A DNA stretch of 64,000 nt from Amycolatopsis nigrescens CSC17Ta-90 (lineage in GTDB: Bacteria; Actinomycetota; Actinomycetes; Mycobacteriales; Pseudonocardiaceae), in contig NZ_ARVW01000001.1 in assembly GCF_000384315.1 (NCBI RefSeq), forward strand, positions 6,927,001 to 6,991,000, in the 5' to 3' direction. The notes beneath the pieces are model-generated. The model made no database searches, was not told the DNA's origin, and was given only the letters and a program-made list of their open reading frames with translations. This document shows positions 42,261 to 48,599 of the stretch, piece by piece. Both the position numbers and the translations under genes were made by a program. Position 1 is the first letter of the stretch. The number at the start of each line of letters is the position of its first letter.

Positions 42261-43460
42261 ATGCACAATGATCTCGAAGTCATGCCCGGTCACGAAGAAC
42301 TGCCGGACGTGGCGCAGTTCGTGGATCTGACGCAGCACGAGATTCTGGCTCTCAGAACAAAATACAACCTGGCCGATGCGCATACCCACCAAAGACAGTC
42401 GGCGTCCCAGGATGCGATAGTCGCGAACCTGCCGCAGGTGTGGCACGAGTCCGAGGACAATCTCCAGGCCTTCTACGAAAAGCGGTTCCTCGACTCGTTC
42501 TTCAAGTTGCACAAGCAGCCGACGGCGGCCGCGATGTCCAAAACCCTGCTCTCCTACTCGGCCAGTGTGTCCACCATGGTGGCTGCCATGTACCTGCGGC
42601 GGCACGACATGTCGGTGTCGCTGGTCGAGCCGTGCTTCGACAACCTCGTGGACCTGCTGAAGTACATGGGCCTTGCCGTGGAAGCGCTCCCCGAGGAGTC
42701 CTTGCACGAGGTTGAGCAAATATACTCCGGGCTGACCTCGGTGACCACCGACGCGTTGTATCTGGTGGACCCGAACAACCCGACCGGTTTCACCCTGCTC
42801 AAGGACGGCCGACGGGGATTCGATGAAGTCCTTCGTTACTGCAAGAACCACGAAAAGCTACTGATCATCGATTTCTGCTTCGCTTCCTTCGCGTTGTGCG
42901 CGGACAACCTCGATCGGGTCGACATCTACCGGATGCTCGAAGAGTCCGGGGTGACGTATATGGCGATCGAGGACACCGGTAAGACCTGGCCGGTCCAGGA
43001 CGCCAAGTGCGCGATGATCACGGTCAGCGAGGACATCAGGGAAGAGGTGTACTCATTGCACACCGCGGTGCTGCTCAATGTGTCACCTTTTGTTTTGAAC
43101 TTTCTGGCCCAGTACGTCGATGATTCCATCGCGGATGAGCTGGCTTCGGTCAAGGACGTGATCACCGAGAATCGTGCCGCGGCCGTGCAAGCGCTGGACG
43201 GGACCGTCCTGGAATACCTGCGGCCGGTGGTGGAGACCAGTGTGGCCTGGTTCCGCATCCGCCGGGACGACCTCACCGCCTCGCAGCTGCAGCGCATGCT
43301 CTTCGAGGACGAGATCTACGTTCTGCCCGGCACGTTCTTCTACTGGAACGAGCCGAGCCGGGGCGAGCGGTACGTGCGGATCGCGCTGGCCCGCCGGCCT
43401 GAGGAGTTCGCCGACGCGATGGTCGCGATGCGGAAGGCACTGGCGAACCATGGCGGCTGA
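42261..43460 (+). CDS. rohP: MppP/RohP-type PLP-dependent L-arginine oxidase/hydroxylase
   Basis: A 399-aa fold-type I PLP enzyme. The N-terminal pattern ([24 protein letters not shown]...[12 protein letters not shown]) is specific to the MppP/RohP branch of arginine oxidases, not ordinary aminotransferases. DPNNPTG (170-176), IIDFCF with Asp204 (pyridine-nitrogen contact) and Lys241 in EDTGKTWP (Schiff-base lysine) are present. MppP and RohP use O2 to turn L-arginine into 4-hydroxy-2-ketoarginine. GAGGGG precedes ATG 42261. It heads the operon and the next gene overlaps it by 11 bp. Regiochemistry in this copy is inferred from the neighbours. Confidence 0.85.
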
Positions 43461-43941
43461 GCGGTATATCGACGCGTCGCTGTTCATGGGCATGCACAGC
43501 GTCAACGAGGCCGTCCGCCTCGCGTGCAAGACGTTCTTCGCCGAGCGGATGGGGCAGACGTTGGTGATGAGCCTCGAACACGTCGGCCGCTGCGACGACC
43601 TGGTGTGGCGGTATCCGAGGGCGATCCAGGACGAGTACTACCCGTTCATGGACAACCTGCACACCGACGCGGCGATCCGCCGGATCGGCTACGACGAGAA
43701 GAGTGTCCGGACCGCCCAGTCCACGCCGGAACTGGCCGGGCTCGACCTCGGAGACCGGCTGCTGCTCGGCATGGTGCTCAACGGCGGCGGCGAGCTGCAC
43801 ACGGTCAACCCGCGGCTGACCGGCCGTCCGGAGCTGCCGGTCCGCCACGTCGCGAGCCCCGGGACGGCTCGTTTTCCCGCCCTGTTGGAGACGTTGTACG
43901 AGCGGTCCCGCGTCCTTCGCGTCGCAGGTCAGGATTGGTGA
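43450..43941 (+). CDS. rohQ: RohQ-position small protein (DUF6190-like), probable cyclodehydratase
   Basis: A 163-aa soluble protein with [54 protein letters not shown] and [19 protein letters not shown]; this matches the DUF6190 pattern and loosely recalls a PIN-like fold. In the azomycin pathway RohQ closes guanidinoacetaldehyde to 2-aminoimidazole. This is the only gene here that could fill that step, and the order P-Q-R-S agrees. Equivalence to RohQ is therefore by position and elimination. ATG 43450 lies inside the end of rohP; the stop overlaps the next start (GTGA). Confidence 0.6.
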
Positions 43942-44744
43942 AGCCGATGTACTCAGGAACGATCGTGCCGCTGGTGACCCCGCTGGACGTGGACGGCGCT
44001 GTCTCCGCGCGGAGCGTGGACCGGCTGGTGGAGTCGGTGCACCAGGACGTCACAGCACTCATGCCCGCGCTCAGCACCGGCGAAGGCTGGCAGCTGTCCG
44101 ACCGGCAGTGGGCCGACATGGTGGCGTTGACCAGGCGGCACAGCAGGGGACTGCCGGTGCTCGCCGGCGTCCAGGCACCCACCACCGAAGCGGTGCTGGC
44201 GCGGGCGAAGCTGGGGGAGGAGCTGGGGGTCGCGGCAGTGGTGGTCGGCACGCCGTACGGGCGCGCTGTCACGCAGGACGAGATCTACCGGCACTACCGC
44301 GCCCTGGCGGCCGAGCTGGCCACGCCGATGTTCATCTACAACGAGTCCGCGGTGTCGGGGAACAGCGCGGAACTGGAGACCCTGCTCGGGGTGCTGGCGC
44401 TGCCCGGGGTCGTGGGGGTGAAGGAGTCCAGCGGTTCACCCGAGTTCACCGGGCGGGTGCTGCGAGCGAATCCGCCGGTACCGGTGTTCCAGGGGTGGGA
44501 GAACCTGCTGGCCGACACCCCCGGGGTCGCGGGGTTCATCGGCCCGCTGGCCAATCTGGAACCGGATCTGTGCAACGGAATGCTCAATGATCCGGTTCCG
44601 GACGGGCAGGCCAGGGTGGACGAGGCGTGTGCCAGGTTCGAGCTGTTCGCCGACGACTGGTACCTCCGGGTCAAGCGCGAACTCGTCCGGCGCGGCGTGA
44701 TCACCACCGATCGAGTGGTGGACGAGCCCAAGGTGCGGACATGA
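43938..44744 (+). CDS. rohR: RohR-like DapA-fold aldolase
   Basis: A 268-aa TIM barrel of the dihydrodipicolinate synthase/N-acetylneuraminate lyase family: GTIVPLVTPLDVDG, STGEGWQLS (46-54), Tyr134 in FIYNES and Schiff-base Lys162 in VGVKESSG. The usual YNxP is YNES here, so it is not a housekeeping DapA. RohR splits 4-hydroxy-2-ketoarginine into pyruvate and guanidinoacetaldehyde. GTG 43938 overlaps the previous stop; ATG 43947 is an alternative start. Assignment rests on fold plus cluster context. Confidence 0.75.
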   Translation: MKPMYSGTIVPLVTPLDVDGAVSARSVDRLVESVHQDVTALMPALSTGEGWQLSDRQWADMVALTRRHSRGLPVLAGVQAPTTEAVLARAKLGEELGVAAVVVGTPYGRAVTQDEIYRHYRALAAELATPMFIYNESAVSGNSAELETLLGVLALPGVVGVKESSGSPEFTGRVLRANPPVPVFQGWENLLADTPGVAGFIGPLANLEPDLCNGMLNDPVPDGQARVDEACARFELFADDWYLRVKRELVRRGVITTDRVVDEPKVRT

Positions 44745-44809
44745 GCAGTCCTATGTCAAGCCGCGGCACCCAGGATGACCACAGCGCGCGCACTGGCGGA
44801 GGAGGAGGC

Positions 44810-45655
44810 ATGAGCGCACCGGACACCGCGGATATCCAGCGTGCGCTCTACCGGTACAACCGTTCGGTTCCGGACGCGGCAGGCTACGCCGAGCTGCTCG
44901 ATCTGGAGCGGCGCTGGGTGGTGCGCCGCGTCGCGGAGTACGAGGCCGCCGCACCCCGGTTCGGCACCCTGACCGAGGTGCTGGCTGCCCTGGGGGACCG
45001 GCTCACCGAGGAGGAGCGGTCCGGGCCGACCGAGGACGAGGTCTTCCTGGCCGAGCGGGCCACTCTCGACCAGTTCAAGGTGGTGGTCGCCGAGTTCGCG
45101 GTGGACGGGCTGGTCGAGTCGCAGTCGCACCTTGCGATCGTGCCGCGGCTTCCGGCGAAGGTCCGCACGTGCGTGCTGCGCGTGCTGATCGACGAGTTCG
45201 GCTGCGGCAACGACGCGCAGGAACACGCCCAGCTGTACACGGCACTGGTCGAGGAACTGGGGATGCCGACCGATCCAGAGACCTATGTGGACAGTGTCTC
45301 GGCGCAGTGCCTGGCGTTCGTCAACCAGTTCCACTGGCTGGCCGGCAGGGCGCCGTCGCCGGAGTACTTCCTCGGCGCCTACGCGTACTTCGAGGCGAGT
45401 GTGCTCTACGCGTTCCGGTGCTATGCCGCGGCCTGCGAACGGCTCGGCATCCGGAACGGCCGCTACTACAGCGAGCACCTGCACATCGACAGCTTCCACA
45501 GCAAGCAGATGCGGGGTGCGATCCGGGCGCTGGAGCAGTACCGGCCGGTTGACCTCCGCAAGGTCTGGGCCGGGATCGAGTTGAGCAGTGCGATAGCCGC
45601 GGAGGCCACCGCCGCGGCCATCGGCAGGGCACGGCAACTGGTGAGTGTCCGGTGA
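44810..45655 (+). CDS. rohS: RohS-like heme-oxygenase-like diiron N-oxygenase
   Basis: A 281-aa all-helical protein of the HDO superfamily. Candidate metal ligands are Glu103 and His107 (VESQSHLA), Glu138/His139 (NDAQEHAQLY), a Glu in YFEASVLYAF, and the H-x3-D-x2-H block in EHLHIDSFHSKQM, as in SznF. RohS oxidises the amine of 2-aminoimidazole to the nitro group of azomycin. GGAGGAGGAGG precedes ATG 44810. An in-frame ATG at 44741 overlaps the rohR stop (ATGA) but would add a disordered Ser/Gly-rich extension. The next gene encodes a Rieske ferredoxin, a probable electron donor. Confidence 0.8.
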   Translation: MSAPDTADIQRALYRYNRSVPDAAGYAELLDLERRWVVRRVAEYEAAAPRFGTLTEVLAALGDRLTEEERSGPTEDEVFLAERATLDQFKVVVAEFAVDGLVESQSHLAIVPRLPAKVRTCVLRVLIDEFGCGNDAQEHAQLYTALVEELGMPTDPETYVDSVSAQCLAFVNQFHWLAGRAPSPEYFLGAYAYFEASVLYAFRCYAAACERLGIRNGRYYSEHLHIDSFHSKQMRGAIRALEQYRPVDLRKVWAGIELSSAIAAEATAAAIGRARQLVSVR

Positions 45656-45909
45656 GGAGCGCGGCAGTGCGCCAGGTGACGGAGACCGAGATCGAGGTCG
45701 AGGTCGACGGCAGGCGGATCGTCGTGCAGAGCGAGTGCCCGCACCGCAAGGGCCGCTTGCGGTTCGGGTTCGTCAACGAACGCAGGCTGAGCATCACCTG
45801 CCCGTTGCACTACTCCACCTTCGACCTGCTCACCGGCCGCCAGCTGAGCGGTCCGGCGTGCGGGCCGCTCCGAGTACGCCCCCGTCCCGCCGGGGCGGAG
45901 TCGTGCTGA
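45652..45909 (+). CDS. Small Rieske [2Fe-2S] ferredoxin
   Basis: An 85-aa Rieske protein with ligands Cys29-x-His31 (SECPHRKG) and Cys50-x2-His53 (TCPLHYSTF), the minimal 2Fe-2S set. GTG 45652 overlaps the rohS stop (GTGA), so it is co-translated with the diiron oxygenase. The likely job is to reduce the oxygenase diiron centre during N-oxygenation; no ferredoxin reductase is in the cluster, so a general reductase would be needed. Electron transfer to RohS is inferred. Confidence 0.85.
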   Translation: MRSAAVRQVTETEIEVEVDGRRIVVQSECPHRKGRLRFGFVNERRLSITCPLHYSTFDLLTGRQLSGPACGPLRVRPRPAGAESC

Positions 45910-45976: not shown

Positions 45977-46648
45977 TCAGCCACGCGGCCGCGGCAACAG
46001 GCGCCGGGCGAGCAGTTGCAGCGCGTCGGTGATCTGCTCCCTGGTCTGCCCGCGCTCGTCGCGCTGGTAGCGGTAGACCTCGGGGGAGAGCGGTGCGAGC
46101 AGACTGTCCACAAGGGACTCGGCGCCCTCGATCCCGGCCTGGCGGAGCAGTTCGAGCACGTGCAGCCGCCAGAACCGGTAGGCCCCGGTCGCCAGCCTGG
46201 AGGCGCCGGACTCCGCGCCCAGTGCGAGTTGCAGATGCTGGTCGAGCAAGTTGATCATCGACTCGTAGAAGGCGGCGAGGCGCTCGGCGGGGGCGGCTCC
46301 GGGGCCGAGCGGCGGTGCGCCCCGGATCAGCTCGTGCTGCAGCTGGCGCTCGTGCTCGTCGAGCAGGGCCACCGCGACCGAGCTGGGACTGGGGTATCGC
46401 CGGTACAAGGTCGCCCGTCCGACCCCGGCCGCGCTGGCGATGTCCTCCATCGTGACGCTGCGCGGATCGACCGTGGCGAACAGCCGCTCCGCGGCCTCCA
46501 GGACCTTCACCCGGTTGCGGGTGGCGTCCGCGCGCTCCTTGCGGCCGGTCCCTTCCTGGCCGACGAGGTCGAGCGAGATCCGTCCCGGGGCTGTTGCCGG
46601 GGCGTCGGCACTGGGCCTGTCGGCAGGCCGGTGGCCGTTGTTGACCAT
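45977..46648 (-). CDS. TetR-family regulator of the cluster
   Basis: A 223-aa TetR protein. An Ala/Pro-rich tail of about 38 aa precedes the HTH (RNRVKVLEAAERLFATVDPRSVTMEDIASAAGVGRATLYRRYPS), and a helical ligand-binding domain follows. It is divergent from the DUF606 exporter, with two matching palindromes in the 136-bp spacer, the usual design for self-repression and product-induced export. The ligand may be the cluster's nitroimidazole-type product (inferred). Confidence 0.9.
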   Translation of the reverse strand: MVNNGHRPADRPSADAPATAPGRISLDLVGQEGTGRKERADATRNRVKVLEAAERLFATVDPRSVTMEDIASAAGVGRATLYRRYPSPSSVAVALLDEHERQLQHELIRGAPPLGPGAAPAERLAAFYESMINLLDQHLQLALGAESGASRLATGAYRFWRLHVLELLRQAGIEGAESLVDSLLAPLSPEVYRYQRDERGQTREQITDALQLLARRLLPRPRG

Positions 46649-46682: not shown

Positions 46683-46748
46683 AAGTGGACACCGCGTCCA
46701 CATATCGGTAGAGTGCCGAATCGGAACAAGTGGACACTGTGTTCACTT
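46683..46748. promoter_or_regulatory. Two TetR operators
   Basis: Site 1 contains GTGGAC-N5-GTCCAC (46685-46701). Site 2 is AAGTGGACA-N3-TGTTCACTT (46728-46748), with arms matching except one pair. Both begin AAGTGGACAC, so they are copies of one site, 45 bp apart. Located between the TetR gene and the exporter, 37 bp before the exporter start. Confidence 0.7.
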
Positions 46749-46784: not shown

Positions 46785-47756
46785 ATGGATGTGGTGGCGT
46801 TACTGGCGGCCGGTCTGTTCATCGGCTGCCTGCTCGCGGTTCAGGCCTCGGTCAACCTCCAACTGAGCAATGCGGTCAAGACTCCGTACGGCGCATCCAC
46901 CCTGCAGCTGACGGTCGCCACCGTCCTGCTCGCGGTGCTGGCCGTCGCGGTCGGGACGATCGGCGCGGTTCAGCTGATCGGGGACGTCGAGTGGTGGCAT
47001 CTGCTCGGCGGGCTCGCCAGCCCGCTCTACATCACCAGCGGAATCCTGCTGTTCCCCCGGCTCGGCGCACTCACCGCCGTCGGGCTGTTCGTCACCGGGC
47101 AGATGTTCGCCTCGCTTGCCCTGGACCTGTTCGGGCTGATCGGGGTCGCCAGGCAGCCGCTCACCATCGGCATGGTGCTGGGCGCGCTGGCCGTGCTCGC
47201 CGGGATCACCGTGATCATCCGTGGTCAGCAGGCGGCCGCCGCCAAGCCGAAGCCGGCCCCGCAGTCGGTGGGGGCCATGCACAAACCCGCCGTCCCGGTC
47301 GGGCACGTCGGCTGGATCCTGCTCGGCCTGATCGCCGGTGCCGTGCTGCCCATCCAGGGCGCGGTCAACGCCAAGCTGCGCCAGGATCTTCAGGCGCCGA
47401 TCACGGTGGCGATGATCAGCTTCATTGTCGCCACCCTGACCATCGTCGTGGTGCTCGCGCTGATGCGCGCCTCGCGGCGCACCCCGGCGCCGCAGCTGCG
47501 ACCGCTCAAGCGGATGCCGTGGTGGGGCTGGCTCGGCGGTGCCTGCGCGGCCACCTACGTGACCGGCACCTTCTTGCTCATCCCGGAAATCGGCGCCGCG
47601 ACGACCGTGGCGCTGGCCGTCACCGGGCAGCAGGCCGCCTCGGCGCTGATCGACGGCTTCGGCTGGTTCCGGATGCCGAAACGCACGCTCACCCCGCCGC
47701 GCCTGATCGGCCTCAGCCTGCTCATCGTCGGCTCGATCCTGGTGCAACTGGCGTGA
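46785..47756 (+). CDS. Duplicated DUF606 (YdcZ-like) DMT exporter
   Basis: A 323-aa membrane protein with ten helices made of two DUF606 halves: residues 1-145 (LLAAGLFIGCLLAVQASVNLQLSNAV) and about 168-323 (LLGLIAGAVLPIQGAVNAKLRQDL). The shared Q-x-x-V/N-N-x-x-L pattern after the first helix of each half shows an internal duplication. DUF606 proteins belong to the drug/metabolite transporter superfamily. Twin TetR operators upstream suggest export of the cluster product. ATG 46785 is chosen by family length. Confidence 0.82.
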   Translation: MDVVALLAAGLFIGCLLAVQASVNLQLSNAVKTPYGASTLQLTVATVLLAVLAVAVGTIGAVQLIGDVEWWHLLGGLASPLYITSGILLFPRLGALTAVGLFVTGQMFASLALDLFGLIGVARQPLTIGMVLGALAVLAGITVIIRGQQAAAAKPKPAPQSVGAMHKPAVPVGHVGWILLGLIAGAVLPIQGAVNAKLRQDLQAPITVAMISFIVATLTIVVVLALMRASRRTPAPQLRPLKRMPWWGWLGGACAATYVTGTFLLIPEIGAATTVALAVTGQQAASALIDGFGWFRMPKRTLTPPRLIGLSLLIVGSILVQLA

Positions 47757-47783: not shown

Positions 47784-48599
47784 GTGTTGTCCAACCTGCG
47801 TAGCCCCTACCTCGCCCTGCCGGGCGTGCACGCACTGCCGTCCCACCTCCCGCTCGGCGAGCTCGGGCTGCTCCCGGTCAACGCCTACCTCGTGCAGGGC
47901 TCGGAACCCGTGCTGGTGGACACCGGCATGGCGATCGACCGGGGCGCCTTCGAGGAGGCGCTGTGGTCACTGGTCGACCCGCGGGACCTCCGCTGGATCG
48001 TGCTCACCCACGACGACCGCGACCACGCCGGGAATCTCAAGGAGGTGCTGATGGCCGCGCCGAACGCGACCGTGATCGCGAACGGCCTCGCCGTCTCCCG
48101 GCTCGGCGAGGAATGGGATGTGCCAGCGCATCGCGTGCGCACGGTCAACCCCGGCCGCACCCTGCACCTCGGCGACCGGAGTTTCACCGTGATCCGGCCG
48201 CCGTCCTACGACTCGCCGTCCACCATCGCGGTCTACGAACACGGCAACCGCGCGCTGTTCTCGGCGGACAGCTTCGGCACCGTGCTCGAGGACATGGCGG
48301 ACAACGCCAACGAGGTCAACGAGCAGGACTACCTCACCGGGATGTCGCTGTTCACCAGGGCGAACGCGCCATGGACGGCGCTGGCCGATCAGTCCAAATG
48401 GGACAGTGCGCTGGCGGAGGTTCGCGGACTCGGGCCCAGCACGGTGCTCAGCTCGCACGGCCCCACCGCGACCGGCCGGACTCAGCACCTGCTCGAAACC
48501 GTCCGCGGCGTGCCCTCCGCGGATCCTTGGCTGCCCGAAGAGGACATCGAGGTCGAGGCCGTGCTCGACCGCTACGAAACCCAGCCGCTGCCCGACTGA
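47784..48599 (+). CDS. Metallo-beta-lactamase-fold protein with altered metal motif
   Basis: A 271-aa MBL-fold protein. The metal-binding block reads His76-Asp-Asp78-Arg-Asp80-His81 (THDDRDHAGN), where the usual second His is Asp. This resembles the HxExDH iron site of flavodiiron ODP domains more than the zinc HxHxDH. Later ligand candidates are FSADSFG and SSHGPTATG. GGAGG precedes GTG 47784, 27 bp after the exporter. A redox, hydrolytic or self-resistance role on the nitroimidazole product is possible but not shown. Confidence 0.8.
   Translation: MLSNLRSPYLALPGVHALPSHLPLGELGLLPVNAYLVQGSEPVLVDTGMAIDRGAFEEALWSLVDPRDLRWIVLTHDDRDHAGNLKEVLMAAPNATVIANGLAVSRLGEEWDVPAHRVRTVNPGRTLHLGDRSFTVIRPPSYDSPSTIAVYEHGNRALFSADSFGTVLEDMADNANEVNEQDYLTGMSLFTRANAPWTALADQSKWDSALAEVRGLGPSTVLSSHGPTATGRTQHLLETVRGVPSADPWLPEEDIEVEAVLDRYETQPLPD

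What the first reader, a model, noticed from the sequence alone, without database searches (positions are those of the whole stretch)
42261..45909. Azomycin (2-nitroimidazole)-type biosynthetic operon with a built-in Rieske ferredoxin
Seen: four overlapping genes encode a PLP enzyme with MppP/RohP-specific N-terminal blocks and Lys241, a small DUF6190-like protein, a DapA-fold aldolase with Lys162 and a non-canonical YNES, and a heme-oxygenase-like diiron protein with H-x3-D-x2-H. Known: RohP, RohR, RohQ and RohS convert L-arginine to azomycin in Streptomyces cattleya. Inferred: this operon makes 2-aminoimidazole and a nitroimidazole. The co-translated 85-aa Rieske protein is a candidate electron donor for the N-oxygenase, which would be a useful new detail of the pathway.
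Basis: partly seen in the sequence, partly recalled or inferred. Interest (0 to 1): 0.8.

Follow-up and report, generated by a model that had tools for sequence, protein, structure and literature searches.

The report
Azomycin operon with conserved Rieske partner
This actinobacterium carries the already known five-gene set for the natural antibiotic azomycin, and comparison with relatives suggests that the small iron-sulphur protein at its end is the dedicated electron supplier of the enzyme that makes the nitro group.

Summary
Confirmed: window 42261-45909 encodes RohP, RohQ (DUF6190), RohR (DapA fold), RohS (heme-oxygenase-like diiron N-oxygenase, HDO) and an 85-aa Rieske ferredoxin. The operon is a new member of a known kind: a five-gene rohPQRST cluster is published, and by position the Rieske gene is rohT, so it is not a new component.

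What comparison adds is its role. A Rieske gene directly follows rohS (79) or is fused to it (1) in 80 of 80 related loci. HDO-Rieske fusions occur in cyanobacteria, a Blastocatellia MAG and Archangium. Five Streptomyces NRPS clusters carry rohS-rohT with no P, Q or R found nearby. RohT is thus a likely dedicated redox partner of RohS, whose published assays used PMS/NADH. This is not shown biochemically: tree covariation ties RohT equally to RohP, a fusion model leaves docking open, and although none of 25 distant HDO loci has a Rieske gene directly downstream, 9 have another Rieske protein nearby.

The cluster probably extends to 50034 (TetR, YdcZ exporter, metallo-beta-lactamase-fold, DsbA-like and LuxR-type genes). 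Azomycin production by this strain is untested, and the 2019 pathway paper could not be read.

The parts
42261..43460 (+). rohP: PLP-dependent arginine oxidase (399 aa), Lys241 PLP lysine
   Evidence: 546 bits to 6c3a versus 182 to MppP 5dj1; K241 in 73 of 73 related RohP
43450..43941 (+). rohQ: DUF6190 cyclodehydratase (163 aa)
   Evidence: PF19689 219 bits; 9c5w_E 'Cyclodehydratase RohQ' E 7e-24
43938..44744 (+). rohR: DapA-fold retro-aldolase; GTG 43938 (overlaps rohQ stop) or ATG 43947
   Evidence: PF00701 100.6 bits; Schiff-base Lys and Tyr in 73 of 73
44810..45655 (+). rohS: heme-oxygenase-like diiron N-oxygenase (281 aa from ATG 44810; an in-frame ATG also at 44741)
   Evidence: PF14518 118 bits; 9pfx PbrRohS 177 bits; ligand positions E103 E129 H139 E195 H223 D227 H230
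45652..45909 (+). rohT: Rieske [2Fe-2S] ferredoxin (85 aa; GTG 45652, alternative GTG 45667), stop-start overlap with rohS
   Evidence: PF00355 39.4 bits; CPH/CPLH; Rieske gene adjacent or fused to rohS in 80 of 80 loci
45977..46648 (-). TetR-type regulator, probable cluster gene
   Evidence: PF00440; a homologue (E up to 1e-8; a large family) within 9 kb of rohS in 47 of 80 loci
46684..46747 (.). two inverted-repeat sites (46684-46702, 46729-46747) between tetR and ydcZ; possible TetR operators
   Evidence: the only matches in the window at up to 3 mismatches, none before rohP (the pattern was read off these sites, so its chance figure is no test); a promoter-like match overlaps
46785..47756 (+). 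YdcZ-type DMT exporter, probable self-protection/export
   Evidence: PF04657 227 bits; homologue within 9 kb of rohS in 37 of 80 loci
47784..48599 (+). metallo-beta-lactamase-fold protein
   Evidence: PF00753; same position in Kibdelosporangium L003
48624..49328 (+). DsbA-like protein
   Evidence: PF01323 28 bits; homologue of the L003 protein within 9 kb of rohS in 62 of 80 loci; same position in L003
49366..50034 (+). LuxR-type response regulator
   Evidence: PF00196; same position in L003

Best explanation
An azomycin (2-nitroimidazole) biosynthetic operon, rohPQRST, in an actinobacterium (family Pseudonocardiaceae, inferred from a contig-length match of a same-family genome). RohP oxidises L-arginine with O2/PLP, RohR cleaves the product, RohQ cyclises the fragment to 2-aminoimidazole, and RohS oxygenates its amine to the nitro group at a diiron site (steps from published work on relatives, inferred here by homology). 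The co-translated Rieske ferredoxin RohT most likely re-reduces the RohS diiron centre between O2 activations, taking electrons from a ferredoxin reductase encoded elsewhere; this step is inferred from comparative genomics, not shown. A divergent TetR/YdcZ pair and three further genes downstream probably give export, protection and regulation (inferred from position and family).
For: Order and identity of P, Q, R, S with conserved catalytic positions. A published five-gene rohPQRST operon needed for azomycin in Pseudomonas DF41 (PMC12713392). For RohT-RohS: the Rieske domain starts within -27 to +99 nt of the rohS end in 79 of 80 loci and is fused in the other (one of the 79, L025, is frameshifted); 20 of the 120 listed relatives of that fusion (of 218; the query itself and one partial protein included) carry both domains, from Calothrix, Desmonostoc, Nostoc, a Blastocatellia MAG, Archangium and unnamed sources, with all metal and cluster ligands invariant in the 17 of 20 that I aligned; in a cyanobacterial genome with separate genes they are still adjacent; five Streptomyces NRPS clusters carry S+T with no P, Q or R in the stretch held (up to 10 kb; only 2.5 kb upstream in L042), their genomes show no DUF6190 gene (positive control 4 of 4), and their RohS form one group inside the rohPQRST tree (support 93). 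Published RohS assays used PMS and NADH.
Against: No biochemistry. RohS works in vitro with PMS/NADH, so RohT need not be specific. Partial distance correlations tie RohT equally to RohS (0.39) and RohP (0.39). On the RohS tree the fused state needs at least 2 changes (3 by parsimony), but gains and losses are not told apart and an unfused cyanobacterial row lies among the fused ones, so repeated fusion is not shown; some fused branches are long and may be misplaced. AlphaFold of the Calothrix fusion is confident per residue (pLDDT 94) but the linker is low and pTM 0.76 leaves docking undecided. Of 25 distant HDO loci 9 also have some Rieske protein in the stretch, though none directly downstream. 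A review says HDOs studied to date need no protein effector (PMC13108848, passage). I identified no reductase gene beside rohT. One S+T-only genome does hold a PLP protein 33% identical to RohP. The 80 loci are the best-scoring of 105 and are related to each other.
Confidence: 0.75

Rival explanations
1. The operon makes azomycin, but RohT is a generic or accessory iron-sulphur protein (protection against nitroso/NO by-products, redox sensing, or help to RohP) and RohS is reduced by housekeeping electron carriers.
For: RohS works with PMS/NADH; RohT tree distances follow RohP as well as RohS; no reductase gene identified beside it.
Against: The fusions found are to the RohS-like domain, and S+T pairs stand in loci without P, Q, R.
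Confidence: 0.2
2. The operon makes 2-aminoimidazole but a different final product, such as a modified or partly oxidised nitroimidazole, because of the accessory genes.
For: MBL, DsbA-like and exporter genes follow; other loci add a methyltransferase-like gene.
Against: S groups with actinobacterial rohPQRST enzymes including a Saccharothrix locus (17 rows, support 95); a Saccharothrix RohS forms azomycin (PMC10724926).
Confidence: 0.15
3. It is an enduracididine- or indolmycin-type arginine pathway.
For: P also matches TIGR04462 MppP (172 bits).
Against: 172 bits against a cut-off of 450; 546 bits to 6c3a; Q, R, S and T follow as in rohPQRST.
Confidence: 0.01

Closest known systems
rohPQRST azomycin operon (S. 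eurocidicus, Pseudomonas sp. DF41/CMR5c; PMC12713392, section 5 read)
   Same: Five genes in the same order; here 44-60% identity to the S. eurocidicus L053 P, Q, R, S proteins and 42-55% to the L074 ones.
   Different: Different neighbours: TetR/YdcZ/MBL/DsbA/LuxR here; luxRI beside the Pseudomonas operons; a methyltransferase-like gene near 22 of 80 loci.
RohS crystal structures 9pfx/9pfw (Pseudomonas)
   Same: HDO relatives; 177/161 bits to the window's RohS.
   Different: Only RohS is named in the entry titles seen; the report on them was not read.
MboA/MboB of mangotoxin: HDO with a dedicated redox partner (PMC13185094, passages)
   Same: Would work alike: an HDO with an operon-encoded [2Fe-2S] electron donor.
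   Different: MboB is a flavin/[2Fe-2S] reductase needed for alkyne formation; RohT is an 85-aa Rieske ferredoxin without a flavin domain and RohS an N-oxygenase.
SznF, N-hydroxylating HDO
   Same: Seven ligand positions match in the alignment at a constant shift of 17 to the published numbers; six are listed in PMC11705231 (passage), E189 is recalled.
   Different: SznF carries a C-terminal cupin domain (same passage).
Rieske ferredoxins of aromatic dioxygenases (2qpz, 3dqy, 3gce)
   Same: Same domain.
   Different: Here next to an HDO, not a Rieske oxygenase.

Membership tests
rohPQRST azomycin operon | P, Q, R, S, T in this order on one strand | tested here: met
   same order in related loci
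rohPQRST azomycin operon | PLP enzyme closer to RohP than to MppP, with the PLP lysine | tested here: met
   546 versus 182 bits; K241 73 of 73; that 6c3a is RohP is recalled
rohPQRST azomycin operon | DUF6190 cyclodehydratase related to solved RohQ | tested here: met
rohPQRST azomycin operon | DapA-fold aldolase with Schiff-base Lys and Tyr | tested here: met
rohPQRST azomycin operon | HDO N-oxygenase with diiron ligands | tested here: met
rohPQRST azomycin operon | makes 2-aminoimidazole and 2-nitroimidazole | not testable with these tools
   needs LC-MS
Rieske ferredoxin | CxH...CxxH motif, small protein without oxygenase domain | tested here: met
   85 aa, PF00355 only
dedicated HDO-redox partner pair (MboAB-like) | partner gene constantly linked to the HDO | tested here: met
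   80 of 80 loci, fusions
dedicated HDO-redox partner pair (MboAB-like) | partner is a flavin plus [2Fe-2S] reductase | tested here: not met
   RohT has a Rieske domain only
dedicated HDO-redox partner pair (MboAB-like) | HDO turnover requires the partner | not testable with these tools
   RohS works with PMS/NADH in vitro
enduracididine MppP | TIGR04462 above its cut-off | tested here: not met
   172 bits, cut-off 450

The most novel reading that the evidence does not exclude
RohT is the dedicated, physiological electron donor of RohS, making RohS-RohT a second kind of HDO-redox partner pair, built on a Rieske ferredoxin. The pair is a portable N-oxygenation module: fused into one self-sufficient polypeptide in cyanobacteria, a Blastocatellia bacterium and Archangium, used with RohQ but without RohP or a RohR-like neighbour in a cyanobacterial cluster, and recruited alone into a Streptomyces NRPS cluster that would make an undescribed N-oxygenated product.
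Probability: 0.5. Interest if true: 0.65.

Novelty: new member of a known kind. Interest (0 to 1): 0.5.

Why it matters
How HDO enzymes get electrons is an open point: PMC13185094 (2026, passages read) calls MboAB possibly the first characterised dedicated HDO-redox partner pair. The comparative evidence here names a second candidate pair, in a nitro-forming enzyme that is slow with artificial reductants (a passage of PMC10724926 puts KaRohS at 5% of the rate of AurF and PrnD), and supplies natural fusions with which to test it. It also points to rohS-rohT in clusters not known to make azomycin.

Tried and rejected
Enduracididine/indolmycin reading: rejected by bit scores and synteny. A single-sequence scan of genome contigs with RohS confirmed nothing; an alignment confirmed 105, of which 80 were returned. 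S. cattleya was not among the 80, so its operon was not compared directly except through 6c3a, whose organism is recalled. Plasmid collection: no match at E up to 1e-20. Distance-matrix covariation (70 loci; L025 dropped for its frameshift) does not separate RohS from RohP as partner of RohT. My distant-HDO control was not clean: 0 of 25 have a Rieske gene directly downstream, but 9 have a Rieske protein in the stretch, so 'Rieske near an HDO' is not unique to RohS; detection there was by the RohT profile and a motif, so more divergent Rieske proteins could be missed, and for 5 of the 25 only about 1.5 kb on each side was read. PHROGs and tRNA scans gave nothing. Hedges and Ryan 2019 is not held, so I could not see what it says of RohT; PMC13274452 (passages) also names an azomycin HDO 'AznD' from a report I did not see. 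Searches listed no held paper that I could see describing RohT as a Rieske protein or testing it; only six papers were opened, by passages or one section, and of these only PMC13108848 holds the word Rieske, not about RohT.

Full report
What is there. P, 42261-43460, is a class I/II PLP enzyme; Q, 43450-43941, is DUF6190; R, from 43938 or 43947 to 44744, has the DapA fold; S, most likely 44810-45655, is a heme-oxygenase-like iron enzyme; the last, 45652-45909, is a Rieske ferredoxin. By sequence against solved structures P scores 546 bits to 6c3a (labelled uncharacterised; recalled as S. cattleya RohP) and 182 to MppP; Q matches 9c5w 'Cyclodehydratase RohQ'; S matches 9pfx PbrRohS. The curated MppP model is far below its cut-off (172 of 450 bits).

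Catalytic positions. In the related loci the P lysine is conserved in 73 of 73, the R tyrosine and lysine in 73 of 73, and the seven S ligand positions in 80 of 80. All seven fall on SznF numbers at a constant shift of 17 in the alignment; six of these are listed as essential in PMC11705231 (passage), the seventh (E189) is recalled.

The related loci. A scan of one genome per species with an alignment of RohS confirmed 105 relatives and returned the best 80 with up to 10 kb on each side. In these, P was found in 73, Q in 71, R in 73, S in 80 and a Rieske frame in 80. In 79 the Rieske domain starts between 27 nt before and 99 nt after the rohS end; in Calothrix L049 it is fused to RohS. L025 is counted although its Rieske frame is shifted (32 bits), so the full motif is present in 79 of 80. 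L063 and L064 have P, R, S and T but no Q was found. L075 starts inside rohS, so its upstream genes are unknown.

The Rieske gene is the known rohT. PMC12713392 (section 5 read) describes a five-gene rohPQRST operon in S. eurocidicus and Pseudomonas; deleting it in DF41 abolished azomycin. In both S. eurocidicus loci I hold (L053, L074) the frame after rohS encodes a Rieske protein, so rohT is the Rieske gene by position; the text seen does not state its product.

Evidence on its role. (1) Constant adjacency, above. (2) Fusions: among the 120 listed of 218 relatives of the Calothrix fusion, 20 have both domains, the query itself and one partial protein included; the 17 of these 20 that I aligned keep all metal and cluster ligands. 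On a tree of 103 RohS rows (12 fused; L081, L084 and the distant L086-L090 left out) the fused state needs at least 2 changes, 3 by parsimony; these may be gains or losses, an unfused cyanobacterial row lies among the fused ones, and the non-cyanobacterial fusions sit on long branches, so repeated fusion is possible but not shown. (3) In the family of Calothrix 6 of 217 genomes, itself included, have the protein; 5 are fused, and in the sixth two adjacent genes encode the parts. A sample of its order gave 1 of 195, Calothrix itself. (4) Five Streptomyces loci (L027, L028, L030, L031, L042) carry S and T near an NRPS, and genes around them are shared among them; P, Q and R were not found in the stretches held, which in L042 reach only 2.5 kb upstream. 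None of the 6 genomes with S+T only, Calothrix included, has a DUF6190 match, while 4 of 4 rohPQRST genomes ring; one of the six has a PLP protein 33% identical to RohP on another contig. These five RohS form one group nested among rohPQRST sequences (support 93). The pair thus appears to move together without the rest.

Evidence that does not help or goes against. Distance correlations tie T to S and P alike (partial 0.39 each). The AlphaFold model of the fusion has pLDDT 94.3 but a low-confidence linker (284-293) and pTM 0.76; Foldseek places it with RohS, SznF and HrmI, and a Rieske ferredoxin appears at rank 50. In 25 distant HDO loci of related genomes none has a Rieske gene directly downstream, but 9 have another Rieske protein: 7 upstream on the same strand at a similar distance (in L112, by Pfam, a FAD-Rieske protein, a GCS2 ligase, then the HDO), 2 as a convergent DUF2231-Rieske gene. 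With 10 Rieske matches in the 9.1-Mb window genome that is above chance, though the 7 look like one orthologous locus. It may mean that Rieske proteins serve HDOs more widely, or that the association is loose.

Literature. RohS assays used PMS, NADH and iron (PMC10724926, passages). PMC13108848 (passages) says HDOs studied to date need no protein effector; PMC13185094 (passages) says MboAB may be the first dedicated HDO-redox partner pair. RohT would be a second, of another type. Hedges and Ryan 2019 is not held and may say more on RohT.

Extent of the cluster. Downstream lie TetR (-), a YdcZ exporter, a metallo-beta-lactamase-fold protein, a DsbA-like protein and a LuxR-type regulator, to 50034, in the same order as in Kibdelosporangium L003. 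Homologues within 9 kb of rohS: TetR 47 (a large family, E up to 1e-8), YdcZ 37, DsbA-like 62 of 80 loci. Two inverted repeats lie between tetR and ydcZ and nowhere else in the window at up to 3 mismatches (pattern read off these sites), so TetR more likely controls the exporter than rohP. In the relatives sample of 199 genomes 139 have some HDO match, but only 5, the window's included, have a RohS-grade one (E under 1e-100), and none of the 79 other genomes of the same genus does, which suggests acquisition by transfer.

Verdict. The operon is an ordinary new member of the azomycin family; the comparative case for RohS-RohT as a dedicated pair is the part worth testing.

Noticed in passing
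L099-L103 (cyanobacterial genomes): A variant cluster: methyltransferase-like protein, RohQ-like DUF6190, RohS-RohT fusion (two genes in L103), cysteine desulfurase-like PLP enzyme, DUF6014 protein and, in 4 of 5, a GST gene (Pfam run on L103 and two L100 genes only). No RohP-grade match in these 5 genomes (one at 20 bits) and no DHDPS gene among the seven L103 genes scanned; RohR was not sought genome-wide. 2-Aminoimidazole may be made by another route or the substrate differs.
   Followed up: partly
L027, L028, L030, L031, L042: Conserved Streptomyces cluster with an NRPS (A-T-C in L031), and in L031 an amidohydrolase, Zn-alcohol dehydrogenase, glycosyltransferase and NTP transferase, with rohS-rohT but no rohPQR found; the A domain of L031 and L030 has FSVAAEE where FDxS is usual (recalled).
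   Followed up: partly
L105, L107, L112, L114, L117, L122, L123: A separate HDO locus in related actinobacteria with a Rieske protein upstream; in L112 it is a FAD-Rieske oxidoreductase followed by a GCS2-type ligase and the HDO.
   Followed up: partly
L053, L072 and 20 other loci: A methyltransferase-like protein (PRMT5-like domain in L053) lies near rohS in 22 of 80 loci: 19 actinobacterial ones of one RohS branch and 3 gammaproteobacterial ones; in L053 a large MnxG-like multicopper oxidase comes next.
   Followed up: no
L063, L064: rohP, R, S, T without a rohQ found between P and R; S. griseocarneus (L063) has a second operon with rohQ (L069).
   Followed up: no
L053/L074, L054/L070, L055/L073, L001/L003: Several species carry two diverged roh operons.
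   Followed up: no
window 46684-46747: Twin inverted repeats in the tetR-ydcZ gap, overlapping a promoter-like match.
   Followed up: partly
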